From Flavitalea plasmicola (lineage in GTDB: Bacteria; Bacteroidota; Bacteroidia; Chitinophagales; Chitinophagaceae), in the NCBI RefSeq assembly GCF_030546645.1, contig NZ_JAUOTO010000001.1, positions 1,116,001-1,180,000 on the forward strand: 64,000 bases of DNA, written 5' to 3'. How positions within the stretch are numbered: the stretch's first letter is position 1; each line of letters starts with the position of its first letter. Shown one piece after another: positions 8,734 to 64,000 of the stretch. The notes beneath the pieces were generated by a model that did not search any database, was not told the DNA's origin, and saw only the letters and a program-made list of their open reading frames with translations. A program made the translations under genes and the position numbers.

Positions 8734-9596
8734 TGTATTCCCGCCTGCAGCTTGTCCGGAAATATATCCGGTATTATCTCACAGCCAGTAACGGCAAAGG
8801 CCATGGCATTCATTCCCCTTTTGTATACGACTTTATCAGGAACGTATTGAATGACGATCGCGTTTATGATGCTTATGTCCCGATCGGCACGCTGCGGGCA
8901 GGATTATTAAAAGATAAGACCTTGCTGGAGGTGGAAGATATGGGAGCGGGGTCTGCGGTAGGCGGAGGGCGGCAGCGCAGCGTGGGTGACATCGCCCGGA
9001 ATGCGGCAAAGCCTGAGAAGTTAGGGAGATTGTTGTACAGGATCGCGAGATATTATAAATGCACTGCGGTGGTGGAACTGGGGACTTCCCTGGGGTTGTC
9101 TACGGCCTATCTGGCTTTTGGGGCCTCAGGCTGCAAGCTACAAGCTACAAGCAATGAGCTGCAAGCTGCGAGCGAGGAAAAGAATGTCGACAAGCGCCCA
9201 TGGGTATGGACGATTGAGGGGGCCGGCGCCGTGGCCGCGGTGGCTGCAAAAAATTTCCACGAGCTGGGATTGGAAAATATAACATTGATCGTGGGGAATT
9301 TCGATGAAAAGCTGGGAGGCGTTCTGAAGCAAGCGGACAATATCGATCTCGCTTTCGTGGATGGCAATCACCGTCTGGAGCCTACATTACGGTATTTTCA
9401 TTTATTGATGAGCCGGTGCGCTCCTTCGTCGATCCTCATCTTTGACGATATTCACTGGAGTGCGGAAATGGAAGAGGCGTGGGCAAGGATCCAGGACGAT
9501 CCGAGAGTGTATATGACCATTGATCTTTTTTTCATAGGGTTGGTTGTCCTGCGGAACGAGTTCAAGGTAAAGCAACATTTTGTCATACGGGTTTGA
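8733..9596 (+). CDS. Class I SAM-dependent methyltransferase carrying a heptamer-repeat insertion
   Basis: A 287-residue methyltransferase of unknown substrate. It opens with LVRKYIRYYLTASNGKGHGIHSPFVYDF, a start common to Bacteroidota proteins of this type, written here as two adjoining motifs (LVRKYIRYYL, GHGIHSPFVYDF). Motif I is VVELGTSLGLSTAYLA (about 113-128) and IDLAFVDGNH is the acidic motif, resembling the O-methyltransferase/DUF-type fold. Residues about 133-148 (CKLQATSNELQAAS) are encoded by seven exact 7-base units (9128-9176). They sit between the first core strand-helix and the WVWTIEGAG motif, where family members have a short loop. The start at 8733 overlaps the folA stop. 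Confidence 0.8.
   Translation: MYSRLQLVRKYIRYYLTASNGKGHGIHSPFVYDFIRNVLNDDRVYDAYVPIGTLRAGLLKDKTLLEVEDMGAGSAVGGGRQRSVGDIARNAAKPEKLGRLLYRIARYYKCTAVVELGTSLGLSTAYLAFGASGCKLQATSNELQAASEEKNVDKRPWVWTIEGAGAVAAVAAKNFHELGLENITLIVGNFDEKLGGVLKQADNIDLAFVDGNHRLEPTLRYFHLLMSRCAPSSILIFDDIHWSAEMEEAWARIQDDPRVYMTIDLFFIGLVVLRNEFKVKQHFVIRV
9128..9176 (+). repeat. Heptamer repeat, in-frame in the methyltransferase gene
   Basis: Seven consecutive 7-base units: AGGCTGC, AAGCTAC, AAGCTAC, AAGCAAT, GAGCTGC, AAGCTGC, GAGCGAG. The period is exact. In the gene's frame it encodes an LQATS/LQAAS run without a stop. Confidence 0.85.
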
Positions 9597-9612
9597 CGGT
9601 CGGGTAATTTTG
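9580..9612 (+). promoter_or_regulatory. Promoter of the pnt operon
   Basis: TAATTTTG at 9605-9612 is a full -7 element and TTG at 9580-9582 lies 22 bases upstream. The first pnt ATG is at 9647, giving a leader of about 30 bases. Confidence 0.5.
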
Positions 9613-9646
9613 TGTAATTTGATAGAAATTCCATTAACCCATCTCT

Positions 9647-10768
9647 ATGATCGTTGGCGTACTGAAGGAACCGGCATTCGAATCAAGAGTTTCGCTACTG
9701 GCAGAAAGTGTGACAGCGCTGGTAAAGAAGAAGATCGAGGTTTGGATAGAAGCGGGCGCCGGGGTAAAGGCCTATTGCGGGGACGACGATTACATCAAGG
9801 CGGGGGCTGTCCTCCGGAGCCGGGAGGAATTGCTCGCTGGAGCGGATATACTGCTCAGTATACATTACAACGATATTCCCGCCACGTTCGGGCATAAGAT
9901 CCTCATCGGCGTTTATCAGCCATTATTCAATCACGCACACCTGCCTGTATGGGCCAAACAGCATATCACCAGCTTCAGCCTGGACATGTTGCCGCGTACC
10001 ACCCGTGCACAAAGCATGGATGTGCTGAGCTCACAGGCCAATATCGCGGGATACAAGGCCATCCTCCTGGCTGCCGAAAAGTCTCCCCGTTATTTTCCCA
10101 TGTTGATGACGGCCGCAGGCAGCATCGCTCCTGCGAAAGTCCTGATATTAGGGGCGGGCGTGGCAGGCTTGCAGGCCATCGCCACGGCAAGGCGGCTGGG
10201 GGCTGTCGTGGAAGTATTCGATACACGTCCGGCCGTAAAAGAGGAAGTAATGAGCCTGGGCGGGAAATTCATCGAAGTACCAGGCGCGGCGGATGCTTCG
10301 AAAGCAGGGGGCTATGCGGTGGAGCAGTCTGCTGATTTTCAATTACGGCAACAGGAAAAGATCGCCGAAAGCATTGCCAGGGCTGACGTCGTCATCACTA
10401 CCGCGCAGATTCCGGGCAAACGGGCGCCTGTGCTGGTAACTTCTTCCATGATCGGAGCAATGCGAAAAGGATCTGTCATCATTGATCTGGCTGCTGCCAC
10501 CGGTGGTAATACGGATGTGACGAAGAACAATGAGACGGTGGTTTATCATGGTGTGACCATCGTCGGAGATTCCTCCCTGCCATCCTCCATGCCATATGAC
10601 GCCAGCAAACTATATGGGAAGAACGTCCTGAATTTTTTGCAATTGATCACTGGCAAAGAAGGTCAGCTGAACCTGGATTTTTCTGATGACCTGGTGAAAG
10701 GATGTTGTATTACATATAATGGGGAGGTGGTGCATGAGAAGCTGCGGGCGGTGAGCGACAAGCCGTGA
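9647..10768 (+). CDS. pntA: NAD(P) transhydrogenase subunit alpha part 1 (PntAA)
   Basis: The NAD(H)-binding domain I of the proton-translocating transhydrogenase, which makes NADPH from NADH using the proton gradient. The 373 residues include an AlaDH/PNT N-terminal domain, a VLILGAGVAGLQAIATARRLGA dinucleotide fold written here as GAGVAGLQA plus ATARRLGA, and VFDTRPAVKEEV. It lacks the membrane segments, which are encoded by the next gene, so the alpha chain is split as in Rhodospirillum-type three-gene operons. The final residues (VSDKP) and the TGA stop fall inside a 7-base repeat that continues into the gap before pntAB. Confidence 0.95.
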   Translation: MIVGVLKEPAFESRVSLLAESVTALVKKKIEVWIEAGAGVKAYCGDDDYIKAGAVLRSREELLAGADILLSIHYNDIPATFGHKILIGVYQPLFNHAHLPVWAKQHITSFSLDMLPRTTRAQSMDVLSSQANIAGYKAILLAAEKSPRYFPMLMTAAGSIAPAKVLILGAGVAGLQAIATARRLGAVVEVFDTRPAVKEEVMSLGGKFIEVPGAADASKAGGYAVEQSADFQLRQQEKIAESIARADVVITTAQIPGKRAPVLVTSSMIGAMRKGSVIIDLAAATGGNTDVTKNNETVVYHGVTIVGDSSLPSSMPYDASKLYGKNVLNFLQLITGKEGQLNLDFSDDLVKGCCITYNGEVVHEKLRAVSDKP

Positions 10769-10806
10769 GCGACGAGTTGCAAGCTACAAGTTATAAGCTG
10801 CAAGTA
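10751..10806 (+). repeat. Heptamer repeat overlapping the pntA stop codon
   Basis: Eight units with exact 7-base period: GTGAGCG, ACAAGCC, GTGAGCG, ACGAGTT, GCAAGCT, ACAAGTT, ATAAGCT, GCAAGTA. The pntA TGA (10766-10768) is part of the third unit. The repeat thus forms the last codons of pntA and most of the pntA-pntAB gap, inside an operon. Confidence 0.8.
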
Positions 10807-10828
10807 AGGAATAATTAAATGCTGATGT

Positions 10829-11137
10829 ATGGAAAATATATTGAGCTGGATAAGCGCGCATCATGAGATGATCTATATCGTGATCCTTATGATCTTTCTC
10901 GGTATCGAGGTCATCGGCCGCGTGCCGGCCGTGCTGCATACGCCATTGATGAGCGGGGCCAATGCGATCCATGGCGTGGTGATCATCGGGGCCATCATCG
11001 TCATGGGCAAGGCGGAGAGTGATAATTATGTAGCCCTTGGGCTGGGATTCCTGGCTGTAGTGCTGGGAACCCTGAATGTGGTGGGCGGCTTTGTGGTGAC
11101 GGACAGGATGTTGGAAATGTTTAAGAAGAAGCGTTAA
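10829..11137 (+). CDS. NAD(P) transhydrogenase subunit alpha part 2 (PntAB)
   Basis: A 102-residue integral membrane subunit with three hydrophobic segments (about 12-33, 42-60 and 66-90). It carries the MSGANAIHGVVIIGAI motif typical of the alpha membrane part. It forms domain II together with PntB and contributes to the proton channel. The gene sits between pntA and pntB, 10 bases before pntB. Start ATG at 10829; the 60 bases before it are filled by the heptamer repeat. Confidence 0.93.
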   Translation: MENILSWISAHHEMIYIVILMIFLGIEVIGRVPAVLHTPLMSGANAIHGVVIIGAIIVMGKAESDNYVALGLGFLAVVLGTLNVVGGFVVTDRMLEMFKKKR

Positions 11138-11147
11138 AATCATTACT

Positions 11148-12686: not shown

Positions 12687-12688
12687 AT

Positions 12689-12696
12689 TAGTTTTA
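12689..12696 (+). promoter_or_regulatory. -7-like box 5 bases before the gene at 12702
   Basis: TAGTTTTA followed by CTTTC and ATG. It differs from TAnnTTTG only in the last base and shows the same 5-base spacing as several other genes here. It starts 2 bases after the pntB stop, so the downstream gene may have its own leaderless transcript. Confidence 0.3.
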
Positions 12697-12701
12697 CTTT
12701 C

Positions 12702-13196
12702 ATGCTGCATAGGAAATTCACGGCTCCTTTTTGGTTTATGCTGGTCCTTGGGACCGTCGCTACCTGCCTGTCGATCTATGGATTACGTATGATCAGCGTT
12801 TATGCGCCCAGTTATGCGATGAGCGCGCTGAGCAAGATAGCCCTCTTCTTTTTGCCTGCCATTATTTTCATCGAGGCCATCATGTATTGGATGGTAAGAA
12901 AAAGAAATGTGTACAGGAGAGCGACATGGACCCATGTGATCTTATTCGCCATCGCTTATTTCACGCCATTTATAAAGGAGTTTTTGTTTATGTCCTATGC
13001 TGTATATGCCGGGGTCCGGGATGTGCGATCTTTTATGAGATCTGTCACCCTGGGACAGATCTGCCTTTTTTGGGGGCTGACGGTTATGGCGCACATCTAT
13101 TTTGCCCGGACGCTTATCAGGATCTTTTCCAAACAGCCGGCCAGTGAGGATGAGGCTGCTCAGCCTGAGAATATGCTGGATGATGTGCTGGGTTAA
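12702..13196 (+). CDS. Membrane protein of unknown function
   Basis: 164 residues with four hydrophobic segments (about 8-28, 40-62, 76-96 and 113-134) and an acidic soluble tail (PASEDEAAQPENMLDD). No known family is recognisable. It lies 15 bases after pntB in the same direction but has a promoter-like box of its own, so a link to the transhydrogenase is not implied. Its length and topology suggest a small inner-membrane protein. Confidence 0.65.
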   Translation: MLHRKFTAPFWFMLVLGTVATCLSIYGLRMISVYAPSYAMSALSKIALFFLPAIIFIEAIMYWMVRKRNVYRRATWTHVILFAIAYFTPFIKEFLFMSYAVYAGVRDVRSFMRSVTLGQICLFWGLTVMAHIYFARTLIRIFSKQPASEDEAAQPENMLDDVLG

Positions 13197-13225
13197 TAGA
13201 GGCAATGTTTGATAAAATTATCAAC

Positions 13226-13233
13226 TACCTTTG
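13226..13233 (+). promoter_or_regulatory. -7 box for the RsmF-like gene
   Basis: TACCTTTG matches the consensus. Transcription would start near 13238, which rules out the in-frame TTG at 13209 and supports the ATG at 13281 as the start. A TTTG at 13208-13211 is only 14 bases upstream, closer than the usual -33 spacing. Confidence 0.5.
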
Positions 13234-13280
13234 CGGATCGAAAAAGTTATAAGGAAGTGCCTGATCTACCAAAGTTATTA

Positions 13281-14666
13281 ATGGATTCTTTACAGGGGGC
13301 CGCGGGTTTTGACGCGGCGGCATTCGAAGCCGTCCATGCATCGGGTGCGCAGGTGACGTCTGTGCGGCTGAACCCTGCAAAATGGCCGGGAGACGGAGAG
13401 ACGCATGAGTGGAGCAGCGATGTGGGGATGGAAAAAATTCCCTGGTCGACCTGGGGGTATTACCTGAGCAAGCGGCCATCCTTTACTTTCGATCCATTGT
13501 TTCATGCCGGCGCTTATTATGTGCAGGAAGCTTCCAGCATGTTCCTTGAACAGGTGCTGCGGCAATCGGCGGACCTCTCGCGCCCGTTGCGGGTATTGGA
13601 CCTCTGTGCCGCCCCTGGTGGAAAATCCACATTGATACGAAGCCTGCTGCCGGAAGATAGTCTGCTGGTGAGCAACGAGGTGATCCGTAGCCGGGCAGGG
13701 ATACTGCAGGAAAATATGATCAAATGGGGCGCCGCGGGGGTGGTGGTCACGAACAATGATCCCCGTGACCTGGGGCGGCTGGAAAATTATTTCGATGTCA
13801 TTGTGGTGGATGCGCCTTGCAGCGGCAGCGGTCTTTTCCGCCGCGAACCGGAGGCTATCGATGAGTGGAGCCTGGATAATGTGCAGCTGTGTCATCAGCG
13901 CCAGCAAAGGATCCTGGCCGACATATGGCCCGCCTTGCGCAGCGACGGCCTGCTGATCTATTCCACCTGCTCGTATTCAAAGGAGGAGGATGAGGAGATA
14001 CTGGATTGGATGATGGAAGAGCTGCAAGCTACCAGCTGCAGGCTGCAAGTGGGGGCCGACTGGAATATTGTTGAGACACAGGGCGATAAGGGCGGGTATG
14101 GTTATCGCTTTTACCCGGACAAGGTGAAAGGGGAAGGATTTTTTATAGCCGCCGTACGAAAGAATGAAGGCAATACGTTCAGTTACCCCAGGAGCAAAAA
14201 ACAGGGATTCGAAAAATTACCCAGGAAAGAGGCGGACGCATTGGGGCCTTGGATAACAGAGCGCTCGCCGCTGTTATTATTCCGGCATGAGGAAATGGTA
14301 CGGGCCTTACCGGCCTCCATGGCGGAGGACCTGAATTACCTGCAATCTTATTGCTACCTGAAAAAGGCAGGTGTATTATTGGGGCAGCCGTCTGTGAAGG
14401 ATTTCATACCGGACCATGAACTGGCCCTGAGTGATTTGATCCATGAGCAGTTGCCTGCTATCGAGCTATCCAGAGAGGAGGCTATCAACTATCTGCGCAA
14501 AGAGGAGCTGCAAGCTGCAAGTGGCAGGCTGCAAGCCGTAAGAGAAGAAAGAAGGGGTTGGTCACTGGTACGCTATCAGGGACAGAACCTGGGCTGGGTA
14601 AAGGTCTTGCCCAATCGCGTGAATAATTATTATCCGAAGGAATGGAGGATCCTCAAGAGACCCTGA
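13281..14666 (+). CDS. RsmF/NOL1-NOP2-Sun family RNA m5C methyltransferase with two repeat insertions
   Basis: Probably methylates a cytosine of 16S rRNA using SAM. Of 461 residues, the core shows motif I LDLCAAPGGKST, motif IV DAPCSGSGLFRR and motif VI STCSYS; the two Cys are the release and catalytic residues of the family. The C-terminal part (WSLVRYQGQNLGWVKVLPNR in two overlapping landmarks, then VNNYYPKEWRI) is the RsmF-type RNA-binding domain. ATG 13281 is chosen because the promoter lies inside the longer frame. Two stretches (about residues 247-258 ELQATSCRLQV and 409-422 ELQAASGRLQAV) are encoded by 7-base repeats, each in a loop between conserved blocks. Confidence 0.88.
   Translation: MDSLQGAAGFDAAAFEAVHASGAQVTSVRLNPAKWPGDGETHEWSSDVGMEKIPWSTWGYYLSKRPSFTFDPLFHAGAYYVQEASSMFLEQVLRQSADLSRPLRVLDLCAAPGGKSTLIRSLLPEDSLLVSNEVIRSRAGILQENMIKWGAAGVVVTNNDPRDLGRLENYFDVIVVDAPCSGSGLFRREPEAIDEWSLDNVQLCHQRQQRILADIWPALRSDGLLIYSTCSYSKEEDEEILDWMMEELQATSCRLQVGADWNIVETQGDKGGYGYRFYPDKVKGEGFFIAAVRKNEGNTFSYPRSKKQGFEKLPRKEADALGPWITERSPLLLFRHEEMVRALPASMAEDLNYLQSYCYLKKAGVLLGQPSVKDFIPDHELALSDLIHEQLPAIELSREEAINYLRKEELQAASGRLQAVREERRGWSLVRYQGQNLGWVKVLPNRVNNYYPKEWRILKRP
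14019..14053 (+). repeat. Heptamer repeat 1 inside the RsmF-like gene
   Basis: Units GAGCTGC, AAGCTAC, CAGCTGC, AGGCTGC, AAGTGGG with exact 7-base period, in frame just after the motif VI helix. They encode ELQATSCRLQVG. Confidence 0.8.
14505..14546 (+). repeat. Heptamer repeat 2 inside the RsmF-like gene
   Basis: Units GAGCTGC, AAGCTGC, AAGTGGC, AGGCTGC, AAGCCGT, AAGAGAA, period 7, in frame before the C-terminal RNA-binding block. They encode ELQAASGRLQAVRE. The copy reads in the same LQA phase as the first. Confidence 0.8.
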
Positions 14667-14672
14667 AAAGTG

Positions 14673-14680
14673 TATATTTG
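14673..14680 (+). promoter_or_regulatory. -7 box for the LysM gene
   Basis: TATATTTG, a full match to TAnnTTTG, 35 bases before the ATG at 14716 and 6 bases after the preceding stop codon. No TTG stands at the ideal -33 distance. Confidence 0.45.
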
Positions 14681-14715
14681 CCTTTACCACGAACCCTATT
14701 TTAAAAAAATACGCT

Positions 14716-15867: not shown

Positions 15868-15955
15868 GGTCTTTGCAGGTGATGTTGCAATTCACGGGAG
15901 AATTGTACTATCTTAGGGATGAAATTACCAATTCAAAACTAACTGCTGTCTGCTC

Positions 15956-26937: not shown

Positions 26938-27909
26938 CTAGCGCCTCCGCGAAACGATATCCCGCACGATCATTTCCGCATGAATACGCGAATTCTCGAT
27001 GAACCACACATGCGTATTCATACCACCGCAAACCACTCCCGCAAGATAAACCCCCTTGACATTCGTTTCCATGGTAGCAGGATCATAAAAAGGCAACAGG
27101 TTCTCATCTTCGGAGAGGCGGATCCCGGCCTGGCGGAGAAATTCAAAATTCGGCTGATAGCCGGTTAAGGCGATGACATAGTCATTGGGAACGGTCTCGA
27201 CGCCATCGGGGGTAAGGATGTCTACTTCATCCGCGCGTATCGCCTGGAGCGTGGAATGAGTGTAGGCTTTGATGCTCCCTTCCTTTATCCGGTTCTCGAT
27301 ATCGGGCTTGACCCAATACTTGACCCGGCGACCGATGCCTTCCCCGCGGATGACCATGGTCACTTCCGCACCTTTGCGCCAGGTCTCCAGGGCCGCATCC
27401 ACGGCGGAATTGCTGGCGCCTACCACGATGACTTTCTGCATGGCATAGAAATGGGGATCCTTATAGTAGTGGACTACCTTGGGGAGGTCTTCGCCGGGTA
27501 TATTCAGAAGGACCGGCAGGTCATAGAAGCCGGTGGCGATGATGATATGGCTGGCGGAATAGGCCCGGCGGGAGCTGGTGATCTCGAATTTCCTGTTGAT
27601 GGGGCGGATGGACAATACCTTTTCCTGGAGGTGAAGGTTCAGCCGATGGGATACGGCCACACGGCGATAGTATTCCAGGGCTTCGGCACGGACGGGCTTG
27701 ACGTTGTTGCTTACGAAGGGGATACCTCCTATCTCTATGCGCTCCGACGTGGAAAAAAAGGTCATATTGGCCGGGTAATTGTACAGGGAGTTGACCAGGC
27801 AGCCTTTTTCCAGGATGAGATAGGACAGGCCGGCGCGTTGGGCCTCCAGGCCGCAGGCGATGCCGATGGGACCTCCACCGACGATGATGATGTCATAGTT
27901 TGTGCTCAT
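26938..27909 (-). CDS. ypdA: YpdA-family bacillithiol disulfide reductase-like oxidoreductase
   Basis: A flavoprotein oxidoreductase of 323 residues. FAD fold DIIIVGGGPIGIACGLEAQR; NADPH fold VIVVGASNSAVDAALE; then GVYLAGVVCGGMNTHVWFIE, typical of YpdA (landmarks shortened where needed). The family reduces bacillithiol disulfide with NADPH, and many Bacteroidota make bacillithiol. It lacks the CxxC of thioredoxin reductases, as YpdA does. ATG 27909 (MSTNYDIIIV) is preferred to a longer start that adds an unconserved basic extension. Divergent from the SPFH gene; a TACCTTTA box lies 17 bases before the ATG. Confidence 0.85.
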   Translation of the reverse strand: MSTNYDIIIVGGGPIGIACGLEAQRAGLSYLILEKGCLVNSLYNYPANMTFFSTSERIEIGGIPFVSNNVKPVRAEALEYYRRVAVSHRLNLHLQEKVLSIRPINRKFEITSSRRAYSASHIIIATGFYDLPVLLNIPGEDLPKVVHYYKDPHFYAMQKVIVVGASNSAVDAALETWRKGAEVTMVIRGEGIGRRVKYWVKPDIENRIKEGSIKAYTHSTLQAIRADEVDILTPDGVETVPNDYVIALTGYQPNFEFLRQAGIRLSEDENLLPFYDPATMETNVKGVYLAGVVCGGMNTHVWFIENSRIHAEMIVRDIVSRRR

Positions 27910-27987
27910 GGTTGTTTTCCGCGGCGTAAAGGTAAGACTTTGCCGGAGAGGATGATTTATGTACATTCACTGCCAAAAACCTCCCGT

Positions 27988-28911
27988 ATGGACGCCCTTT
28001 ACCACTATTGGTGGATCATTATTGTCATAGCATTTGTCTTCAGCGGCCTGGTCACCGTCAACCAGGGCTATATTAATGTACTTACCATGTTCGGTAAATA
28101 CCAGCGGATATTGAAGCCGGGATTGAATTTTAAGATACCGTTCCTGGAACAGATCTATAAACGCATCTCTATTCAAAACCGGAGCGTGGAACTGGAGTTC
28201 CAGGCCGTTACGGCGGATCAGGCAAATGTCTACTTCAAGAGCATGCTGCTATATGCGGTGCAGAATGCGGATGAGGAGACCATCAAAAGAGTAGCGTTCA
28301 AATTCATCAGTGACCGGGATCTTATGCAGGCGCTTACCCGTACCATCGAAGGCAGTATCCGGTCTTTTGTGGCGACCAAACGGCAGGCGGAGATCCTGGG
28401 ATTGCGCAAGGAGATCGTCGAGTTCGTCAAGGACCAGATCGACCATTCGCTGGAAGAGTGGGGCTATCACCTGCTGGACCTTCAGATCAATGATATCACA
28501 TTCGACCAGGCCATCATCGACAGTATGAGCAAAGTGGTGGCCAGTAATAACCTGAAGGCGGCTGCCGAGAATGAGGGACAGGCCTTGCTCATCACCAAGA
28601 CCAAAGCCGCGGAGGCGGAAGGGAATGCGATCAAGATATCGGCTGAAGCGGAAAAAGAAGCCGCCCGTCTGCGCGGACAGGGAGTGGCATTGTTCCGCCA
28701 GGAAGTGGCGCATGGTATGAGCGAGGCAGCCGAGGAGATGAAACGGGCTAATCTGGATACCAATGTGATCCTTTTCAGTATGTGGACGGAGGCTATCAAG
28801 AATTTTGCAGAGGTGGGAAAGGGCAATATCATTTTCCTGGATGGCAGCAGTGAAGGTATGCAGAATACCATGCGGCAGATACAGGCGCTCATGGTGAAGC
28901 AGGGCACTTAG
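27988..28911 (+). CDS. SPFH/Band 7 (stomatin-like) membrane protein
   Basis: 307 residues: one N-terminal membrane segment (about 5-24), an SPFH domain (VTVNQGYINVLTMFGKYQRI, in landmarks VNQGYINVLTMFG and LKPGLNFKIPF), a long coiled coil of about 190-235 rich in Ala/Glu (TKAAEAEGNAIKISAEAEKE) and a C-terminal region. Such proteins oligomerise at the inner membrane and scaffold proteases or lipid domains. No NfeD partner is adjacent. The frame is open far upstream, but that part is only antisense to ypdA; ATG 27988 begins the conserved region. ATG 27952 is possible. Confidence 0.85.
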   Translation: MDALYHYWWIIIVIAFVFSGLVTVNQGYINVLTMFGKYQRILKPGLNFKIPFLEQIYKRISIQNRSVELEFQAVTADQANVYFKSMLLYAVQNADEETIKRVAFKFISDRDLMQALTRTIEGSIRSFVATKRQAEILGLRKEIVEFVKDQIDHSLEEWGYHLLDLQINDITFDQAIIDSMSKVVASNNLKAAAENEGQALLITKTKAAEAEGNAIKISAEAEKEAARLRGQGVALFRQEVAHGMSEAAEEMKRANLDTNVILFSMWTEAIKNFAEVGKGNIIFLDGSSEGMQNTMRQIQALMVKQGT

Positions 28912-29008
28912 GGCTGCAAGCGGCAAGCTACAAGCTGCAAGCTAGGTGTGAGCTAAAAGCTGTTAGCTGGGGCCTTACTCGTCGCTTGTCGCTTGCAGCT
29001 TGTAGCTA
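28911..29008. repeat. Heptamer repeat, inverted pair, downstream of the SPFH gene
   Basis: The left arm (28911-28945) reads GGGCTGC, AAGCGGC, AAGCTAC, AAGCTGC, AAGCTAG and resumes after a 4-base slip (AGCT at 28951, 28958, 28965). The right arm (28981-29008) reads GTCGCTT, GTCGCTT, GCAGCTT, GTAGCTA. The 17-mer AGCTACAAGCTGCAAGC at 28926-28942 is exactly inverted at 28991-29007, so the RNA can fold into a long hairpin. It fills the 193-base gap before exbB. Confidence 0.85.
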
Positions 29009-35629: not shown

Positions 35630-35681
35630 TATCCTGTGAAAAGTAAATGATGTGCTGAAAGATCTAATTAAATCCGTGGCT

Positions 35682-37937
35682 ATGAAATACATTTCTACCC
35701 TCTTCCTGCTTGCGATGAGCTCGCTCATTTCGCCGGCTTTTGCCCAATTGAACAATGGCGGTCTCAACGCCGGTTTCGGCGTTGACGCTGATACGCGTGC
35801 CAACTACATGAAATATGGTATGACGACGGGAGCCGTCATCAGTGATGACTGGTTTTCCCCCTCCCTTTCCGGTAATAACGTGATCGATACGTCGAACGCG
35901 GCTTATTATCTGTCGTTACTGCAGGGAGGCGCCAATATGGGCTTTTCCAAAAGGATGTCCGCGCTCCTTTATGCGAGGGTGAGCGGGAGGCTGTGGCTGG
36001 ATGCTGTATATGGCAGGGATTACGTCGCAACCAACCCTTTGACGGATTCGACTGCCTTTACTATTGCCAGCAAGAATGGGGACAACCCCGGCGTTTGGGC
36101 GGGAGGGAGCACCAATTTTCCGGACAAGAACGATCTCGTGGATGCTTTTGCCCATATGCGCAGGAACGGCACCAGCGTTTATGATTCACTATGGCTTTTC
36201 ACCGGCGTGTCCACCGTCGGCGTTTCCGGATCGAGATATTTTGATATAGAGCTGTACAAAAAGAATTTCAGCTACAACGGGACCACCGGCGCTTTTTCCA
36301 GCGCGGGAACTGAAGCCGGCCATACGCAATGGCTATTCGATGCCAGCGGGAATATTACGCAAACGGGGGACCTGATCCTTGCCGTCAACTATTCTCCCGG
36401 AGCGCCACCCGTGGTGGATGTACGCATTTGGGTAAGCAGCACGACCTTTACGACGGTTGTTCCCGCCTACTTTAATTTTGGGGCGAGCTTCGACGGCGCC
36501 AGTGCGTCTCCTGCCTATGGGTATGCTTCTATCTTATCCAAGACGGGCGCCACGAACTTTGGTTCCGGCATTGCAAATTATTCGGCCACGGCCGCACAGG
36601 ACACGACCTATGCCACGCCCTGGGGGACGGAGCTCTCGACCAAGAACTGGGGGACGCAATACCAAACCTTACAGCTGATTGAAATGGGCTTAAACCTGAC
36701 CAGGATCGGGGTGGATCCGGCATTGTATACCGCATCCGGATTAAGCCCCTGTCAACCCTTATTTTCCGATATTTTTTTCAAATCCCGGTCATCCAATTCC
36801 TTTACATCCAATATGCAGGATTTCATCGTACCCCTGGTGTTCGTACAGAACCCTGTGATGGATTATTCTTTAAAACCTGACACCTTGCGGTGCAATCACA
36901 CGGCGGGCAGCATTCAGATCACCAATAACAGCACGGCCGGGTATTATACCTGGCAGACGGCCAATGGAGCTATTTCCGGCGCGAACACGGACAGCTCGCA
37001 GATCAATGTCACCAAGCCAGGCACCTATATCGTATCGGCTTCTCCTGCATTGGGATGTCCTGCCACCCGGAAAGACACCGTGGTCATACCGATCGATACT
37101 TTTCCACCAGTGGCTTCTATTGCTGTTGCGCCCGGTAGCAGCTTGTCTTACCTGCAATTCTATGGGGGAAATACCAGCGCCAGCAACTATTCCACTCCTT
37201 TTGGCGGCAGCAATGGATTGCTGTGGAATTGGAGCGGTCCGCAGAGCTTCGCATCTACCATCCAGAATCCCCGCACGGTGGATACCGCCGGCGTTTGGGG
37301 CACTTACCAGCTGATCGTGACGGAAAAGAGAAACGGATGTAAGGATACTGCCATTAAAACCATCTCTATGTACGATTTTATTGTTCTGTCCACAGATGAT
37401 CTGAAAGTTAAGGGCGTCTACAGCGATCATTCGATCGTCGTGACCTGGGAGGACCATAGCCAGGACGGGGCCGGCGCTTACGAGATAGAAAGGTATACGG
37501 GGAATGATGGATATAAGGCGATCGGCACTGTATTGAATGGTGGCGGAAATGCGGGACAATTTTCATTCACGGACAATGATCCTTTGCAAGGCAATAACAG
37601 GTACAGGATCAAGGCTACCGGCAAAAATGGACAGATCTACTATTCAGGTGTGGTGACTGTGGCCGCAGGAAGGTCCGGATTGCAAAGCATTTACCTGGCA
37701 GGCAGCGCACCCGGCAAGGGTGTGATGACGTTGATCGTTAATGCGGATGCGGACTCCCGGGCCGAGATCCTCCTGTATAATCTTTCGGGTCAGCGTCTGT
37801 GGGATAAACCTGTTCAGTTTGGCAAGGGAATGAATACTTTCGGCCTATCTACGGCAGGGGCCCAGGTGGGAAGCGTACAGGTAATTTTCATACTTGTCGA
37901 AGGCCGCGTGGCTTATTCGCAGAAGATAATGTTTTGA
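35682..37937 (+). CDS. Large secreted protein with C-terminal sorting-like domain
   Basis: 751 residues. A signal peptide (1-22, ending PAFA) leads a long beta-rich region with no recognised family (FGVDADTRANYMKYGMTTGA is a typical start in Bacteroidota surface proteins, shown as VDADTRANYMKYG). An Ig/PKD-like part follows at about 405-560 (CNHTAGSIQITNNSTAGYYTW in landmark form ITNNSTAGYYTW, ATRKDTVVIP), then a fibronectin-like segment (VTWEDHSQDGAGAYEIERYT region). The end (EILLYNLSGQRLW, MNTFGLSTAG, KIMF) is a degenerate type IX sorting domain. A cell-surface adhesin or scaffold is the best guess. ATG 35682 is preferred to GTG 35652. Confidence 0.75.
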   Translation: MKYISTLFLLAMSSLISPAFAQLNNGGLNAGFGVDADTRANYMKYGMTTGAVISDDWFSPSLSGNNVIDTSNAAYYLSLLQGGANMGFSKRMSALLYARVSGRLWLDAVYGRDYVATNPLTDSTAFTIASKNGDNPGVWAGGSTNFPDKNDLVDAFAHMRRNGTSVYDSLWLFTGVSTVGVSGSRYFDIELYKKNFSYNGTTGAFSSAGTEAGHTQWLFDASGNITQTGDLILAVNYSPGAPPVVDVRIWVSSTTFTTVVPAYFNFGASFDGASASPAYGYASILSKTGATNFGSGIANYSATAAQDTTYATPWGTELSTKNWGTQYQTLQLIEMGLNLTRIGVDPALYTASGLSPCQPLFSDIFFKSRSSNSFTSNMQDFIVPLVFVQNPVMDYSLKPDTLRCNHTAGSIQITNNSTAGYYTWQTANGAISGANTDSSQINVTKPGTYIVSASPALGCPATRKDTVVIPIDTFPPVASIAVAPGSSLSYLQFYGGNTSASNYSTPFGGSNGLLWNWSGPQSFASTIQNPRTVDTAGVWGTYQLIVTEKRNGCKDTAIKTISMYDFIVLSTDDLKVKGVYSDHSIVVTWEDHSQDGAGAYEIERYTGNDGYKAIGTVLNGGGNAGQFSFTDNDPLQGNNRYRIKATGKNGQIYYSGVVTVAAGRSGLQSIYLAGSAPGKGVMTLIVNADADSRAEILLYNLSGQRLWDKPVQFGKGMNTFGLSTAGAQVGSVQVIFILVEGRVAYSQKIMF

Positions 37938-37950: not shown

Positions 37951-38028
37951 TAGCTACAAGCTGCAAGCGGTAAGCTTCAAGTCATGCTTAAATAACGCTG
38001 ATAGCTTGCAGCTTGGGGCTTGCAGCTA
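37951..38028. repeat. Heptamer repeat, inverted pair, between convergent genes
   Basis: Left arm TAGCTAC, AAGCTGC, AAGCGGT, AAGCTTC, AAGTCAT (37951-37985); right arm ATAGCTT, GCAGCTT, GGGGCTT, GCAGCTA (38001-38028). The 17-mer AGCTACAAGCTGCAAGC at 37952-37968 is identical to the one at 28926. The last right-arm unit supplies the TAG stop of the convergent porin gene. It could serve as a two-way terminator. Confidence 0.85.
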
Positions 38029-50476: not shown

Positions 50477-51682
50477 AGTTTTTTCATTGAATTCTTTCTC
50501 AGACTTTGAGATCACCAGCGTCGCCACCCCATTCCCAATGATATTCGTGATAGCGCGTGCCTCGCTCATGAATTTGTCGACGGCCAGCAGAACGGCCAGG
50601 CCCTCCACGGGAATTTTTTGAATAGCGGTGAGGGTGGAGGCGAGTACGGTAAAACCGCTGCCGGTGACGCCTGCCGCCCCTTTTGAGGTGACCATGAGTA
50701 TGCCGAGAATGGTAAGCATTTCTCCTGTCGTCAGCTGTACATTATATAATTGGGCCAGGAAAATGGCTGCCATGGAAAGGTAGATGGAAGTTCCGTCCAG
50801 GTTGAAGGAATAGCCGGTGGGAACGACGAGCCCTACTACGGACCTGCTGCAACCCATTTTTTCCAGCTTGTTCATCAGGGAAGGGAGGGCGGCCTCGGAG
50901 GAAGAGGTGCCGAGTACGATGAGGATCTCTTCCTTAATATTTTTCAGATAGGTGAAGATGCTGAGCTTGAAATAACGAAGGATCAGTCCCAGCACCACCA
51001 CGATGAAGATGGCCATGGTGCCGTACATGGTCAGCATCAGCTTGCCGAGGGGCACCAGCGTCCTGATGCCGTATTTCCCGATGGTGGAGGCCATGCCTCC
51101 GAACGCACCCAGAGGGGCCAGCAGCATGACGATCTTTAAAAGCCAAAAGATCCATTGGGTAACAGGTTCCATATACGCCAGGATCTTCTCCCGCCTGCGG
51201 CTGAGACTTACGATAATGCCCACGATGATGGCCAGCACGAGGACCTGTAGCGTGAGGTTTGATAGAAAGAACTCTTTCCAATTAATATGCGCTGCGCCTT
51301 TGGTGTACTTTGATGCATCCTGGATGGGCAGGCCGCTCTTATCTATTTTGCCCGGCTGGATGAACAGCGCCAGCAGGATGCCGATGGCCAGGGAGATCGT
51401 GGTAATAACCTCAAAATATAAAAGGGATTTGATCCCGATGCGTCCTACTTTCTTCAGGTTGCTCATGCCGCTGATGCCGGGAACAATGGTGAAAAAGATG
51501 ACAAAGGGTATGAAGACCTTGATAATGGCGATGAACCAGTCGCCCATCCATTTGGTCCCGATGGCCGTGGCGGGATAAAAATATCCCAACAGCACGGCGC
51601 CCACCAGGGCAACGGCTACCAGCAGGGTAAGATGAGCGGTGAAATTAAGCCGTGGAGGTTTCGGCAGGGTGGGTGTATTCAT
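50459..51682 (-). CDS. Dicarboxylate/amino acid:cation symporter (DctA/GltP family)
   Basis: 407 residues with eight or more membrane segments. Hairpin motif GTSSSEAALPSLMNK and the substrate helix GYSFNLDGTSIYLSMAAIFL identify the DAACS family; VTSKGAAGVTGSGFTVLAST is the second hairpin. It imports C4-dicarboxylates or glutamate/aspartate with H+ or Na+. Its start overlaps the kynU stop (ATGA), so transport is co-expressed with kynureninase. Substrate not resolved. Confidence 0.9.
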   Translation of the reverse strand: MNTPTLPKPPRLNFTAHLTLLVAVALVGAVLLGYFYPATAIGTKWMGDWFIAIIKVFIPFVIFFTIVPGISGMSNLKKVGRIGIKSLLYFEVITTISLAIGILLALFIQPGKIDKSGLPIQDASKYTKGAAHINWKEFFLSNLTLQVLVLAIIVGIIVSLSRRREKILAYMEPVTQWIFWLLKIVMLLAPLGAFGGMASTIGKYGIRTLVPLGKLMLTMYGTMAIFIVVVLGLILRYFKLSIFTYLKNIKEEILIVLGTSSSEAALPSLMNKLEKMGCSRSVVGLVVPTGYSFNLDGTSIYLSMAAIFLAQLYNVQLTTGEMLTILGILMVTSKGAAGVTGSGFTVLASTLTAIQKIPVEGLAVLLAVDKFMSEARAITNIIGNGVATLVISKSEKEFNEKTLEIQG

Positions 51683-53025
51683 GCGACTTGCTGAAAATTG
51701 GCTAATATATGATAAAACCTGTGGACGTCCTCAAAGGAGTTATACAGGGGCGCCGGGGCTACCCTGATGACACCCGGTTCGCGATAATCTACGATGATGC
51801 CGGCTGCGATCATTTTATCATGAATGGCCTTGCCATGCTCCTTAAAATAAAGGGAGAGCTGGGCGCCTCTTTTTGCCGGATCGATGGGGGTGATGATGTC
51901 AAAGCTGATATTGGTTAGTTGTTGTAGCAAAAAGGACAGGTAAGCGGTTAGCTCCAGGCTTTTGGCTCTTAGCCGATCCATCCCCGCCTCATCGAAAAGC
52001 CGGAGGGAGGCTTTGAGGGCCACCATGTTGAAGACCTGTGAGGTGCTCATATTCCATCCGGAGGCATTGGGTTTGGGAACAAACCCTTTCTCCATTTTAA
52101 AACGGGTGGCTTCATCGTTTCCCCACCAGCCGCCCAGCCGGACGTAGTCCCTGTTATGGGCGTACCGTTCATGCACATAGGCGCCGCCGACGGCTCCCGG
52201 TCCCCCATTCAGGTATTTGTAGGAGCACCATACGGCGAAGTCGACGTCCCAGTCATGCAATTGCAGGGGAACATTGCCGACGACGTGTGCGAGGTCGAAT
52301 CCTGCGATGGCTCCCACTTTGTGTGCGGCCGCCGTAATGCCACCGATATCGAACAGCTGGCCCGTGTAATAGTTGATGCCGCCGAATAACACGATGGCCA
52401 GGGTATCACGGTGCTGATGAATGGCGGCGAGGATATCTTCTTCCCTGATGAGCTTTTCGCCTTCGCGGGGACTGATCTCTATAATAGTCTTATCCGGATC
52501 AAGACCATGCCATTTTGCCTGTGTTTCCAGCGCATATTGATCGGAGGGGAAGGCGCCGGCTTCCATGATGATCTTATACCGTGCGGCATTGGGCCTGTAA
52601 AAAGAAAGGAGAAGCAGGTGCAGGTTGACGGTGAGGGCATTCATAACGGTGAGCTCCATTTCCCGTGCACCGGTCAGCTTTGACAGCGTGCCTTTAAAAG
52701 GTTCCTGGTAAGTCAGCCAGGGATTTTTTGCCTGTAGATAGCCTCCTACGCCCAGGTCCTGCCAGTCTTTCAGTTCCTGCTGAACAGCAGGAGCTACGTC
52801 CCTGGGCTGCAATCCCAGTGAGTTGCCGCAGAAATAGATGGCGTCTTCCTCAGCTGTCGGCAGCGAGCGGTCAGTTACAAGTGGTGAGCTTTGAGTTTCG
52901 AGCGGAGGGTTTCCGGCTACCATCGGTTTGCGGGGAAAATAAAACCGGGAGCGAAAGCTTTGCAGCTCATCCTCCCGGTCTTTTCGTTGTGCAAATTCCA
53001 ACGTGGTATCGAATGGTTCCTGCAT
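51679..53025 (-). CDS. kynU: Kynureninase with N-terminal repeat insertion
   Basis: Cleaves kynurenine to anthranilate and alanine with PLP. 448 residues: IYFCGNSLGLQPRDV, FPSDQYALETQAKWHGL, AGFDLAHVVGNVPLQLHDWD, then the PLP lysine in WCSYKYLNGGPGAVG, and GWWGNDEATRFKMEKGFVP (landmarks trimmed). Around residues 41-55 (PLETQSSPLVTDRSL) there is an insertion before IYFCGNSLG; its DNA shows a 7-base period on the opposite strand. No other kyn genes are adjacent. ATG 53025 is preferred to the in-frame TTG at 53043. Confidence 0.93.
   Translation of the reverse strand: MQEPFDTTLEFAQRKDREDELQSFRSRFYFPRKPMVAGNPPLETQSSPLVTDRSLPTAEEDAIYFCGNSLGLQPRDVAPAVQQELKDWQDLGVGGYLQAKNPWLTYQEPFKGTLSKLTGAREMELTVMNALTVNLHLLLLSFYRPNAARYKIIMEAGAFPSDQYALETQAKWHGLDPDKTIIEISPREGEKLIREEDILAAIHQHRDTLAIVLFGGINYYTGQLFDIGGITAAAHKVGAIAGFDLAHVVGNVPLQLHDWDVDFAVWCSYKYLNGGPGAVGGAYVHERYAHNRDYVRLGGWWGNDEATRFKMEKGFVPKPNASGWNMSTSQVFNMVALKASLRLFDEAGMDRLRAKSLELTAYLSFLLQQLTNISFDIITPIDPAKRGAQLSLYFKEHGKAIHDKMIAAGIIVDYREPGVIRVAPAPLYNSFEDVHRFYHILANFQQVA
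52863..52904 (+). repeat. Divergent heptamer repeat inside kynU
   Basis: Six units on the plus strand with AG at the same place: GCGAGCG, GTCAGTT, ACAAGTG, GTGAGCT, TTGAGTT, TCGAGCG. AG falls at 52866, 52873, 52880, 52887, 52894 and 52901, an exact 7-base step. It lies antisense to kynU and is stop-free in kynU's frame. Units are more diverged than AAGCTRC. Confidence 0.65.
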
Positions 53026-53090
53026 GTTATGACTTTCATGCAAGATAATGTAAAAGCTAATGTCTGTAGCCTTCGGTTCTGGTCAGCCGC

Positions 53091-57603: not shown

Positions 57604-57617
57604 AAATAGCATGCTAA

Positions 57618-59576: not shown

Positions 59577-59630
59577 ATATCCCGTAGGCAGTTTTTTTAA
59601 AGGTAAAGTAAATAAATATAATGTCTCACG

Positions 59631-59638
59631 TATCTTTA
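59631..59638 (+). promoter_or_regulatory. -7-like box 5 bases before ftsK
   Basis: TATCTTTA, then CATTC, then the ftsK ATG at 59644. The last base differs from TAnnTTTG. The 5-base spacing repeats that at several other genes in the window. Confidence 0.35.
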
Positions 59639-59643
59639 CATTC

Positions 59644-62229: not shown

Positions 62230-62237
62230 TTTTCGAA

Positions 62238-62245
62238 TATATTTG
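62238..62245 (+). promoter_or_regulatory. -7 box for the LolA-like gene
   Basis: TATATTTG, full match to TAnnTTTG, 8 bases after the ftsK stop. The leader to the ATG at 62322 would be about 70 bases, the longest seen here, so there is room for regulation. Confidence 0.45.
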
Positions 62246-62321
62246 CGGCCGTTGAACCAACATTGGGTCTTTTAACACAGGAGGGCTTTAAACCTATGGA
62301 GCCTGACTAAATCAAAAAAAC

Positions 62322-62999
62322 ATGCGTTCGAATACTAAGAAGTTCATTGTATCAATATTACTCTCAGGCGTTTTTCTAATGGGGAAGGCCCAGAATAACT
62401 CCCTGGGAAAGAATGACCCTGAGGCCAAGAAAGTGCTGGATGGGTTGAGCGCAAAGCTGAAATCCTATAAGGCGGTGCAGTCCAACTTCACCCTGAAGGT
62501 GGAGGATGCCAAGGGTAAGCTGCAGGGCACCAAGAGCGGGATCGTATATGTGAAAGGCAGCCGGTACCACATCAGCATTACGGGCCAGGAGGTCTTCAGC
62601 GATGGAAAGGATGTGTGGACATACGATAAATCTTCCAATGAGGTGACGATCACCAAGAGCGATCCTTCCGTAGCGACCATCAGTCCGGAAAAGTTCTTCA
62701 CTAATTTTTATGATAAGGATTTCCTCTACAAGCTGAATGGAGAGGCTAAAGTAGGCGGACGGGTTGTGCAGGAGATTGAGCTGACGCCCGTAGACAAGAC
62801 CAAATCTTTTTACAAAGCGCTGCTGTACATTGACAAGGCGCAGCACTCGCTGGTAAGCGTCAAATGGTTTGACAAAGGTGGAAATCACTATACGCTGGAT
62901 ACCAGTAAGTTGAATGGGAATGCACCGCTTACGGACGCCCAGCTGGCTTTCAACAAGGCTAAGTACCCCGGGGTGGAGGAAGTGGACCTGAGGAACTAG
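62322..62999 (+). CDS. lolA: LolA-like outer-membrane lipoprotein carrier
   Basis: 225 residues with signal peptide 1-23 (ends GKAQ). The LolA fold is visible as VLDGLSAKLKSYKAVQSNFT, IVYVKGSRYHISITGQEVFS, DGKDVWTYDKSSNEVTI and LYIDKAQHSLVSVKWFDKGG. It should carry lipoproteins across the periplasm to the outer membrane; family members in Bacteroidota may have other periplasmic roles. Its TAG stop is formed in an ACTAGCT unit of the following repeat. Confidence 0.85.
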   Translation: MRSNTKKFIVSILLSGVFLMGKAQNNSLGKNDPEAKKVLDGLSAKLKSYKAVQSNFTLKVEDAKGKLQGTKSGIVYVKGSRYHISITGQEVFSDGKDVWTYDKSSNEVTITKSDPSVATISPEKFFTNFYDKDFLYKLNGEAKVGGRVVQEIELTPVDKTKSFYKALLYIDKAQHSLVSVKWFDKGGNHYTLDTSKLNGNAPLTDAQLAFNKAKYPGVEEVDLRN

Positions 63000-63071
63000 C
63001 TGTGAGCCGGGAGAAGCTTTGAGCCGGCCTAATAAAACGCTCGCAGCTCGTGGCTGGAAGCTCGCAGCTGT
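62995..63071. repeat. Heptamer repeat between convergent lolA and ubiX
   Basis: The left part has AG at 62998, 63005 and 63012 (ACTAGCT, GTGAGCC, GGGAGAA). The right part has GCT at 63039, 63046, 63053, 63060 and 63067, an exact 7-base step over five units. lolA's TAG lies in the first unit, and ubiX's TAG (63073-63075 on the minus strand) lies just past the last. Units are diverged from the core. Confidence 0.7.
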
Positions 63072-63072
63072 T

Positions 63073-63630
63073 CTAGGCGCCCCACCGGAAGGTGGATATA
63101 TCCAGTCCCGCCAGGTCGAGGACCCTGTCTACGACAGTGGCGGCCACCTCTTCGATGGTGGTTGGTTTGCTGTAGAAGGAGGGAGTAGCGGGACAGATGA
63201 CACCACCTGCCAGGGTCAGGGTCTCCATGTTCCGGATATGGATCAGGTTATAAGGGGTATCTCTCACCACACAGATCAATTTTCTTCTTTCTTTAAGGAT
63301 GACGTCGGCAGCCCTGGTAATAAGGTCCGAGGATACGCCTGTGGCGATGCGGCCCAGGGTGCCCATGGAGCAGGGGACGATGATCATAGTATTGTATTTT
63401 CCTGAGCCGGAGGCGAAGGGGGCCGAAAAGTCACGCTGGGAAAAAAAGGGAATGGCATAGCCGGTGTAATCTTCGTTGTCCAGCTCTGTCTTCCACACTT
63501 CTTTTGCATTCTCCGTCATTACGACTGCCAGGGATTGCCATTGATCTTTCAATGCGAGAAGCTTATTCAGCAGCAGCCGGGCATAGATAGAGCCGCTTGC
63601 GCCTGTCACAGCAACGACAATTTTGTGCAT
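63073..63630 (-). CDS. ubiX: UbiX-family flavin prenyltransferase
   Basis: Makes prenylated FMN, the cofactor of UbiD-type decarboxylases. 185 residues: IVVAVTGASGSIYARLLLNK (FMN site), VVMTENAKEVW, VPCSMGTLGRIATGVSSDLI, RAADVILKERRKLICVVRDT and TLAGGVICPATPSFYSKP. Bacteroidota use it in menaquinone-related or aromatic acid decarboxylation; no ubiD is in the window. It is convergent with lolA. Confidence 0.93.
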   Translation of the reverse strand: MHKIVVAVTGASGSIYARLLLNKLLALKDQWQSLAVVMTENAKEVWKTELDNEDYTGYAIPFFSQRDFSAPFASGSGKYNTMIIVPCSMGTLGRIATGVSSDLITRAADVILKERRKLICVVRDTPYNLIHIRNMETLTLAGGVICPATPSFYSKPTTIEEVAATVVDRVLDLAGLDISTFRWGA

Positions 63631-63686
63631 GTTAATTCGTTAGATTTAGAGTGATCCGGACCTGGATAATTTAAAACAAAAGTACT

Positions 63687-64000
63687 ATGAACAGATTGAA
63701 AGGTAGCTTTTTATTAAGCGCGGTTGGATTGGTGCTGGTATGCGGGCTATCGGCATGGAAGAGCTTCAGGCTACAAGCTGATAGCTGCAAGCACCTCCCA
63801 ATAGACTCGCTTGTGGCTTGTGGCTTGCCGCCTGCAGCTAACAACAGCTCGGAGCTGAATTGGATGAGCATCGAAGAGGCTGCAGGCAAGCTGAAACAGG
63901 AGCAGCGGCCTGTCCTGATCGATTTGTATACCACCTGGTGCGGCTGGTGCAAACAGATGGATAAAAAGACCTATTCCAATAAGCAGGTGGCGCAATACCT
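63687..64000 (+). CDS. Thioredoxin-fold secreted protein (5' part) with repeat insertion
   Basis: The window ends inside this gene; 104 codons are visible. A signal peptide (about 1-23: LLSAVGLVLVCGLSAW) is followed by a stretch of about 28 residues (FRLQADSCKH, DSLVACGLPPAANN) encoded by 7-base repeats, then a thioredoxin domain with WMSIEEAAGKLKQEQRPVLI and the redox motif TTWCGWCKQMDKKTY. CGWCK resembles DsbD-gamma or YyaL-like thioredoxins. ATG 63687 is divergent from ubiX, 56 bases away. The function probably is periplasmic thiol reduction. Confidence 0.85.
   Translation, partial: MNRLKGSFLLSAVGLVLVCGLSAWKSFRLQADSCKHLPIDSLVACGLPPAANNSSELNWMSIEEAAGKLKQEQRPVLIDLYTTWCGWCKQMDKKTYSNKQVAQY
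63761..63839 (+). repeat. Heptamer repeat, both orientations, inside the thioredoxin-like gene
   Basis: Forward units GAGCTTC, AGGCTAC, AAGCTGA, TAGCTGC, AAGCACC (63761-63795); reverse part with GCTT at 63809, 63816 and 63823, GCCT at 63830 and GCT at 63837. In the reverse part GCTTGTG replaces the GCTTGTA form, so the TAG that the latter would create is avoided and the frame stays open. Confidence 0.8.

What the first reader, a model, noticed from the sequence alone, without database searches (positions are those of the whole stretch)
9128..63839. A dispersed repeat family with an exact 7-base period at nine loci
Runs of degenerate heptamers (core AAGCTRC, wider consensus NNRAGYN) occur at 9128, 10751, 14019, 14505, 28911, 37951, 52863, 62995 and 63761. 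Each keeps an exact 7-base step for 4-8 units, apart from one or two slips. Nine sites in 64 kb implies hundreds per genome. Heptamer short tandem repeats (STRR) are known from heterocystous cyanobacteria; I know of no such description for Chitinophagaceae. The mechanism of spread is unknown: no transposase is near any copy.
Basis: partly seen in the sequence, partly recalled or inferred. Interest (0 to 1): 0.85.

Follow-up and report, generated by a model that had tools for sequence, protein, structure and literature searches.

The report
Seven-base repeat hairpins at gene ends
This bacterium carries many short runs of a loose seven-letter DNA repeat that often start at a gene's stop signal and are often mirrored by a second run to form a hairpin; the same design is seen in some distant bacteria, and at the places tested there part of the word is kept by selection.

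Summary
The window has degenerate heptamer arrays (unit YRAGCNN, mostly CAAGCTG/CAAGCTA) at all nine sites, above shuffled DNA; one site (14019) is probably only coding resemblance. Four of nine sites are convergent inverted pairs: a sense arm of about 31 nt, a loop, an antisense arm. The sense arm often begins at a stop codon: 25 of 58 intergenic arrays lie within 7 nt, against 1.6 expected. The window genome (Chitinophagaceae) has 408 strict matches; 26 of 32 congeners have none. The same element with the same geometry is dense in some Pseudomonas, Halomonas and Alcanivorax. Among Pseudomonas species it is present or absent at the same gene ends, twice around hisA; a REPIN-like palindrome replaces it once. 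Three of four tested in-gene arrays are in-frame insertions. At three Pseudomonas loci the AGC core is strongly conserved while NN evolves about as fast as the loop; the two arms do not covary. The closest known kind is the Xanthomonas/Nostoc GGGNATC heptamer repeat: about four units, stop-codon placement, inverted pairs, discussed there with G-quadruplexes, which AAGCNNC should not form. I call it a new variant of a known kind, probably a slippage-grown 3'-end stem-loop. Its function is unproven.

The parts
9123..9173 (+). heptamer array inside a Methyltransf_24 ORF (8640-9596), sense strand
   Evidence: profile score 61.3; Pfam domain aa 145-271 spans 127 residues for a 105-position profile; insertion not tested against relatives
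10739..10804 (+). heptamer array running through the 3' end and stop codon of an alanine dehydrogenase-like gene (9647-10768)
   Evidence: score 66.3; stop at 10768 lies in the array; Pfam AlaDh_PNT
14019..14049 (+). array-like stretch inside an RsmF-like gene; probably coding resemblance, not an inserted array
   Evidence: score 41.0; 19 of 19 relatives align without an insertion here, and the same stretch of G017 (L313) scores 31.1
14505..14542 (+). array in the same RsmF-like gene; overlaps an in-frame insertion in the PUA domain
   Evidence: score 43.7; 18 of 19 relatives lack 8 residues here, one lacks 2
28913..28943 (+). sense arm starting 2 nt after the stop of a Band_7 gene (27256-28911)
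   Evidence: (called there as 28913-28969)
28984..29007 (-). antisense arm of the same inverted pair
   Evidence: called there as 28951-29007
37952..37981 (+). sense arm 15 nt after the stop of the 761-aa ORF (35652-37937)
   Evidence: score 41.6; context
37997..38027 (-). antisense arm; its outer end overlaps the stop of the convergent gene
   Evidence: score 37.1
52852..52903 (+). weak array antisense inside a kynureninase gene (51679-53043 -)
   Evidence: score 29.3; overlaps 9 extra residues relative to a solved kynureninase, 7s3v
62998..63024 (+). sense arm overlapping the stop of ORF 62322-62999
   Evidence: score 22.7, weakest site
63039..63069 (-). antisense arm of the pair
   Evidence: score 38.7
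63761..63792 (+). plus arm of an inverted pair with no stop codon called nearby
   Evidence: score 36.2
63809..63856 (-). minus arm of the same pair
   Evidence: score 41.4

Best explanation
Each site is one arm or both arms of a heptamer-armed gene-end element: stop codon, then about four or five YRAGCNN units on the mRNA sense strand, a short loop (in some Pseudomonadota an intrinsic terminator), then the inverted array. Shown: the geometry, the stop-codon anchoring, lineage-specific presence and absence at fixed gene ends, some coding insertions, and constraint on the AGC core at three Pseudomonas loci. Inferred: arrays grow and shrink by 7-base (or 14/21-base) slippage; they survive mainly just after stop codons because insertions there harm neither protein nor promoter; once present, many are kept as 3' stem-loops in the transcript, with the CAAGC/GCUUG blocks carrying the pairing and the NN bases free. 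The likely effect is on mRNA 3'-end formation or stability, as proposed for REP/BIME hairpins (recalled).
For: Stop anchoring: sense 5' end within 7 nt of a stop in 25 of 58 intergenic arrays of the own genome (null mean 1.6, max 7) and 70 of 177 in named genomes (null mean 6.6, max 19); the antisense counterpart is 1 and 15. Pairing: plus-then-minus neighbours 21 against 1 the other way in the own genome, 43 against 4 in named loci. RNA folding: mean z -4.3 for 20 own and -5.0 for 35 named elements. Core constraint at three loci: 0.72 changes per site in AGC/GCT (72 sites), 4.33 in NN (48), 3.78 in the loop (80); core below NN P=3e-13, core below loop P=5e-15, NN versus loop P=0.34. Presence and absence around hisA and next to a terminator. 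Coding insertions. Period 7 is the commonest period in four samples.
Against: Cognate arms pair no better than swapped arms (68 percent of permutations as good in own, 63 percent in named), and NN shows no consistent excess of cognate complementarity, so selection for a perfect hairpin is not seen. Core identity is kept more strictly than pairing alone would need. The wobble test is inconclusive. Only 9 of 34 named loops and 0 of 20 own loops look like intrinsic terminators. Many arrays have no partner arm. In 200 kb of G238 and G281, two relatives with many matches, 15 AAGC arrays show no inverted pair and only 3 within 7 nt of a sense stop. The core-constraint test is from Pseudomonas only, at three loci, two in one gene cluster, on loci chosen for good alignment; ectopic conversion between arrays could mimic part of it. 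No expression data were seen.
Confidence: 0.45

Rival explanations
1. The arms are binding sites for a sequence-specific DNA- or RNA-binding protein that reads AGC every 7 bases; the hairpin is a by-product.
For: AGC is nearly invariant while NN evolves like the loop; no arm-arm covariation; inverted symmetry.
Against: Other Chitinophagaceae genomes use other heptamers near gene stops, which would need other readers. No candidate protein was found or sought.
Confidence: 0.22
2. Neutral or selfish period-7 slippage arrays, tolerated after stop codons; core conservation reflects turnover of units or conversion between hundreds of similar arrays.
For: Period 7 is commonest with several different units; 7-nt indels and a 21-nt block duplication are seen; extreme patchiness.
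Against: NN rate is about the loop rate while the core is about five times slower; strong sense orientation at stops; consistent plus-then-minus pairing.
Confidence: 0.23
3. A mobile element (MITE or REPIN-like) moved by a transposase.
For: Present or absent at the same gene ends in Pseudomonas; a REPIN-like palindrome sits at one of the same sites; a Clostridia MAG has 78 matches, many with the same unit order, and two of its loci share much of the loop.
Against: No conserved ends or clean target-site duplication seen by eye at the hisA sites; NN order differs between copies. No transposase search was made.
Confidence: 0.1

Closest known systems
GGGNATC / GGGGA(C/T)T heptamer repeats of Xanthomonas and Nostoc (Rehm et al. 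2015, PMC4692102; passages of the abstract and results, and the Discussion, seen)
   Same: Degenerate heptamer, four units commonest, 186 and 183 arrays in two Xanthomonas genomes, downstream repeats mostly on the coding strand within 50 bp of or overlapping a stop codon, convergent inverted pairs (70 and 75 cases), few between divergent genes.
   Different: The unit here is unrelated and has no G-runs, so no G-quadruplex is expected; found in other lineages; core constraint, empty sites and coding insertions examined here.
TAACTGA direct repeats of Beggiatoaceae, cyanobacteria and some Bacteroidetes (PMC4679880; abstract passages, introduction and other passages seen)
   Same: Heptamer direct repeats, mostly intergenic, patchy across phyla, no known transfer mechanism.
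REP / REPIN / BIME palindromes
   Same: Intergenic stem-loops (general properties recalled); one REPIN-like palindrome occupies the same hisA-hisF site in one species (by eye).
   Different: Arms here are tandem heptamers with unmatched NN; no REP head seen; no TnpA-REP link tested.
STRR / long simple sequence repeats with heptanucleotide units (Mrazek 2007, seen only as cited in PMC4679880 and PMC4692102)
   Same: Excess of 7-nt units.
   Different: Here the unit is degenerate, often paired and often anchored at stops.

Membership tests
Xanthomonas/Nostoc heptamer repeats (as an architecture) | tandem 7-nt unit, about four copies | tested here: met
   own paired arms median 31.5 nt; 29 of 40 have 4 or 5 cores
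Xanthomonas/Nostoc heptamer repeats (as an architecture) | sense strand at or near a stop codon | tested here: met
   25 of 58 and 70 of 177 within 7 nt; not so in G238/G281, 3 of 15
Xanthomonas/Nostoc heptamer repeats (as an architecture) | convergent inverted pairs | tested here: met
   21 against 1 own; 43 against 4 named; none among 15 arrays of G238/G281
Xanthomonas/Nostoc heptamer repeats (as a sequence family) | GGGNATC unit able to form a G-quadruplex | tested here: not met
   unit YRAGCNN has no G-run; quadruplex formation itself not measured
REP/REPIN | short palindrome with GTAG/CGTC-type head | tested here: inconclusive
   no shared head seen by eye in 20 own and 35 named element alignments; no pattern search made; head motif from the title of PMC3733652
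REP/REPIN | associated TnpA-REP (RAYT) gene | not tested
   no search made
MITE | conserved terminal repeats and target-site duplication | tested here: inconclusive
   occupied and empty hisA-hisF sites differ too much to read a junction
Rho-independent terminator | GC-rich hairpin followed by a T-run | tested here: inconclusive
   0 of 20 own loops and 9 of 34 named loops; the stretch after the far arm was only looked at by eye
Rfam families | covariance-model match at the gathering score | tested here: not met
   0 in the window; 12 array loci give only one match, sRNA P31 at L109:7305-7377, away from the arrays
DNA uptake sequences | uptake bias in a competent host | not testable with these tools
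   needs an experiment

The most novel reading that the evidence does not exclude
A general class of gene-end elements exists whose hallmark is a 7-nt period, not a sequence: each lineage writes its own heptamer (AAGCNNC, GGGNATC, CGTTNAA and others) in inverted arms anchored at stop codons. A 7-nt-measuring process makes them, and a factor that reads the lineage's core keeps them. G-quadruplex formation would then be incidental in Xanthomonas.
Probability: 0.25. Interest if true: 0.85.

Novelty: new variant of a known kind. Interest (0 to 1): 0.6.

Why it matters
A heptamer without G-runs that has much the same copy number, stop-codon placement and inverted pairing as the Xanthomonas repeats argues that G-quadruplexes are not the common cause, and makes the question of why bacterial long simple repeats favour 7-nt units testable. 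The element can add C-terminal tails and internal loops to proteins and alters gene ends inside a biosynthetic gene cluster. It gave no Rfam match in the window or in 12 array loci, and my ten literature searches listed no description of it. If the core is read by a factor, that factor is unknown.

Tried and rejected
Hairpin covariation was tested twice and not found. A wobble-asymmetry test gave P=0.015 for CA versus other YR in 38 elements with one sense gene (125/48 against 154/31), but the excess comes partly from edge units and I do not rely on it. Loop lengths show no clear quantisation modulo 7. The idea that the stop codon seeds the core (TAGC, TRAGC) was dropped: those offsets hold 11 of 32 own and 17 of 89 named cases, about 2 in 7 or fewer. 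A shared loop motif in the own genome scored above shuffles, but the motif took in array letters, so I do not claim it. Terminator function as the sole explanation was dropped because two elements lie before hisA and between hisA and hisF; that these genes are co-transcribed is inferred from their order. In 12 other genomes of the genus, none has an array near the 3' end of the homologue of the 761-aa gene, but four of those ends had no stop located and identities range from 56 to 79 percent. Literature: a search for AAGCNNC strings (two of six strings required) listed one unrelated mosquito paper; the other nine searches had capped listings in which the only titles on bacterial heptamer repeats were PMC4679880 and PMC4692102. 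Only open-licence PMC papers are covered. PMC2267715 and PMC2718517 were looked at in passages only.
Full report
Observation. The nine sites are period-7 arrays. A model-free count finds 10 runs of three or more RAGY at step 7 (100 shuffles: mean 0.33, maximum 2) and 6 runs of four or more (shuffles: 0); other steps give 0 or 1 except step 14. A profile trained on the own genome gives the unit YRAGCNN, with A, G and C of the core at 95 to 99 percent and the rest variable. The nine sites score 22.7 to 66.3; six shuffled windows reach 21.4.

Missed anatomy. At 28913, 37952, 62998 and 63761 the plus array is followed within a few dozen bases by an array on the minus strand. In 664 kb of the own genome (16-216, 236-436 and 976-1240 kb of contig C11, partly chosen because hits were listed there) I called 70 arrays, 58 intergenic and 12 in ORFs; of the 12, 8 are sense and 4 antisense to the ORF. 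Plus-then-minus neighbours within 150 nt number 21, minus-then-plus 1. Loops are 14-21 nt (14 cases) or 31-37 nt (6 cases); one further pair overlaps. Paired arms have a median of 31.5 nt; 29 of 40 have 4 or 5 cores.

Position. With genes called by my own simple codon-usage caller, the 5' end of 25 of 58 intergenic arrays lies within 7 nt of the stop codon of a gene on the same strand; 1000 random intergenic placements give a mean of 1.6 and a maximum of 7. The mirror case, array 3' end at an antisense gene's stop, occurs once. By eye the array often overlaps the stop codon.

Distribution. In the genus 7 of 33 genomes, the own one included, have any match to AAGCNNCAAGCNNCAAGC: 408 in the own genome, 11, 9 and 6 in three others, 1 each in three, none in 26. 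In the family 33 of 294 genomes drawn and 24 of 101 genera have a match; those with 20 or more are G000 408, G238 287, G281 151, G315 76, G051 36 and G234 21. One family member (G091) has the same match coordinates as G327, the genome of Deminuibacter soli, which the NCBI taxonomy places in Chitinophagaceae. In the phylum draw 19 of 247 have a match, several of them perfect simple repeats such as AAGCACC. In the phylum of a Pseudomonas genome 29 of 299 have a match; only two are dense, 296 and 179. Some outside the Gammaproteobacteria are single perfect AAGCTCC arrays and may be ordinary simple repeats. Alcanivorax sp. S6407 has 460 matches, Pseudomonas dryadis 386, Halomonas beimenensis 221.

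Same geometry elsewhere. In the 119 loci of that scan (928 kb) I called 189 arrays, 182 of them intergenic: 43 plus-minus against 4 minus-plus neighbours, and 70 of 177 intergenic arrays within 7 nt of a sense stop, null mean 6.6, mirror case 15. Five of the 182 fell out because their loci had no called gene. In 9 of 34 loops of 12 nt or more a hairpin with a T-run lies between the arms, against 0 of 20 in the own genome, so in some Pseudomonadota the order is stop, array, terminator, array. Against this, two array-rich relatives do not share the geometry: in 200 kb of G238 and G281, 15 AAGC arrays include no inverted pair and only 3 within 7 nt of a sense stop, and they are mixed with other repeats.

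Presence and absence. At the L106 locus the 30 best-matching of 149 Pseudomonas genomes all keep the first arm, and 29 keep the second (L192 lost it). Twenty others, chosen because their alignment broke at the array, have an unrelated spacer there; 19 of 20 give no array call at score 18, and L207 gives one weak call of 22.0. At the L074 locus 5 of 30 fetched loci (of 147 genomes matched) have an array call; in four of them it lies beside a terminator-like hairpin, with different unit numbers. Two have a terminator straight after the stop and no array; the other 23 have no array, and several show other terminator- or REP-like palindromes by eye. Around hisA (HisA and HisF named by NCBIfam) one element lies before hisA and one between hisA and hisF. 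Of the 30 best of 99 matched genomes, 26 carry the first, some decayed, and 4 do not; 22 carry the second, 7 do not, and one (L277) has a REPIN-like palindrome instead. HisA of L110 ends in array-encoded residues and an array stop codon.

Coding insertions. An ATP-dependent DNA ligase has a 148-nt array where G018, its nearest relative by identity, lacks 42 residues; the place is a linker of variable length, and G017 fills it with a similar length of unrelated residues. G018 has no strict match in its genome. The second array of the window's RsmF-like gene overlaps 8 residues absent from 18 of 19 relatives (one lacks 2). The kynureninase array overlaps 9 residues absent from a solved kynureninase. 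So three of four arrays tested are insertions.

Selection. Fitch changes per site on trees from the flanks: L106 locus (30 species) core 0.83, NN 3.88, loop 3.81; first hisA element (26) 0.67, 4.94, 5.88; second (22) 0.67, 4.07, 2.73, where NN is faster than the loop (P=0.04). Pooled: core 0.72 (72 sites), YR 2.31 (48), NN 4.33 (48), loop 3.78 (80); core below NN P=3e-13; core below loop P=5e-15; NN against loop P=0.34. Sites are not independent, and two loci are in one gene cluster. The 26 and 22 are the loci passing my length filter.

Hairpin or not. Elements fold better than shuffled (mean z -4.3 and -5.0), but cognate arms pair no better than swapped ones. Paired NN bases, cognate against non-cognate, of 2: 1.14 and 0.89 (first hisA element), 1.19 and 1.20 (second), 1.14 and 1.11 (L106), 1.07 and 1.30 (own), 1.04 and 1.02 (named).

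Generality of the period. With no sequence given, period 7 is the commonest in four samples: own 34, G238+G281 45 (period 8: 18), G313 21, a Pseudomonas (G445) 14; period 14 echoes it, and shuffles give none at period 7. By consensus 29 of 34 own and 14 of 14 G445 segments are AAGCNNC; in the other two samples the units vary. Intergenic arrays within 10 nt of a stop against a start: own 17 and 3 of 37, G238 16 and 1 of 40, G313 6 and 1 of 28, G445 12 and 3 of 23; no null model was run for these.

Known kinds. Rehm et al. 2015 describe GGGNATC-type repeats in Xanthomonas and Nostoc with four units commonest, stop-codon proximity or overlap on the coding strand and, in two Xanthomonas genomes, 70 and 75 convergent inverted pairs; they relate four units to the quadruplex and say a functional role remains to be elucidated. 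The AAGCNNC family shares that architecture without G-runs. I therefore file it as a new variant of that kind, and commit, at moderate confidence, to slippage-grown 3'-end stem-loops under core selection.

Noticed in passing
G313 (L350-L359), for example joined coordinates 66933-67054: Another Chitinophagaceae genome carries period-7 arrays of different units (CGTTNAA, CAACGAA, ACTAACA), some in inverted pairs by eye.
   Followed up: partly
G313, G164, G603, G706, G803: The backwards control pattern (CGAANNC x3) is itself frequent in a few genomes (65+59 in G313), hinting at further heptamer families.
   Followed up: partly
G000 contig C11, about 49-237 kb and 386-639 kb: Listed strict matches are regionally clustered with long gaps, reminiscent of the 'repeat deserts' of P. 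fluorescens SBW25.
   Followed up: no
L032, L035 (Clostridia MAG, G331): Two similar heptamer-armed elements that share much of the loop; many matches in that genome lie at contig ends, as expected of a true repeated element.
   Followed up: no
G000 whole genome: Matches are uneven between listed strands (236 against 172; 456 against 249 for the loose pattern), perhaps only contig orientation.
   Followed up: no
L109:7305-7377: Rfam match to Pseudomonas sRNA P31, away from the arrays.
   Followed up: no
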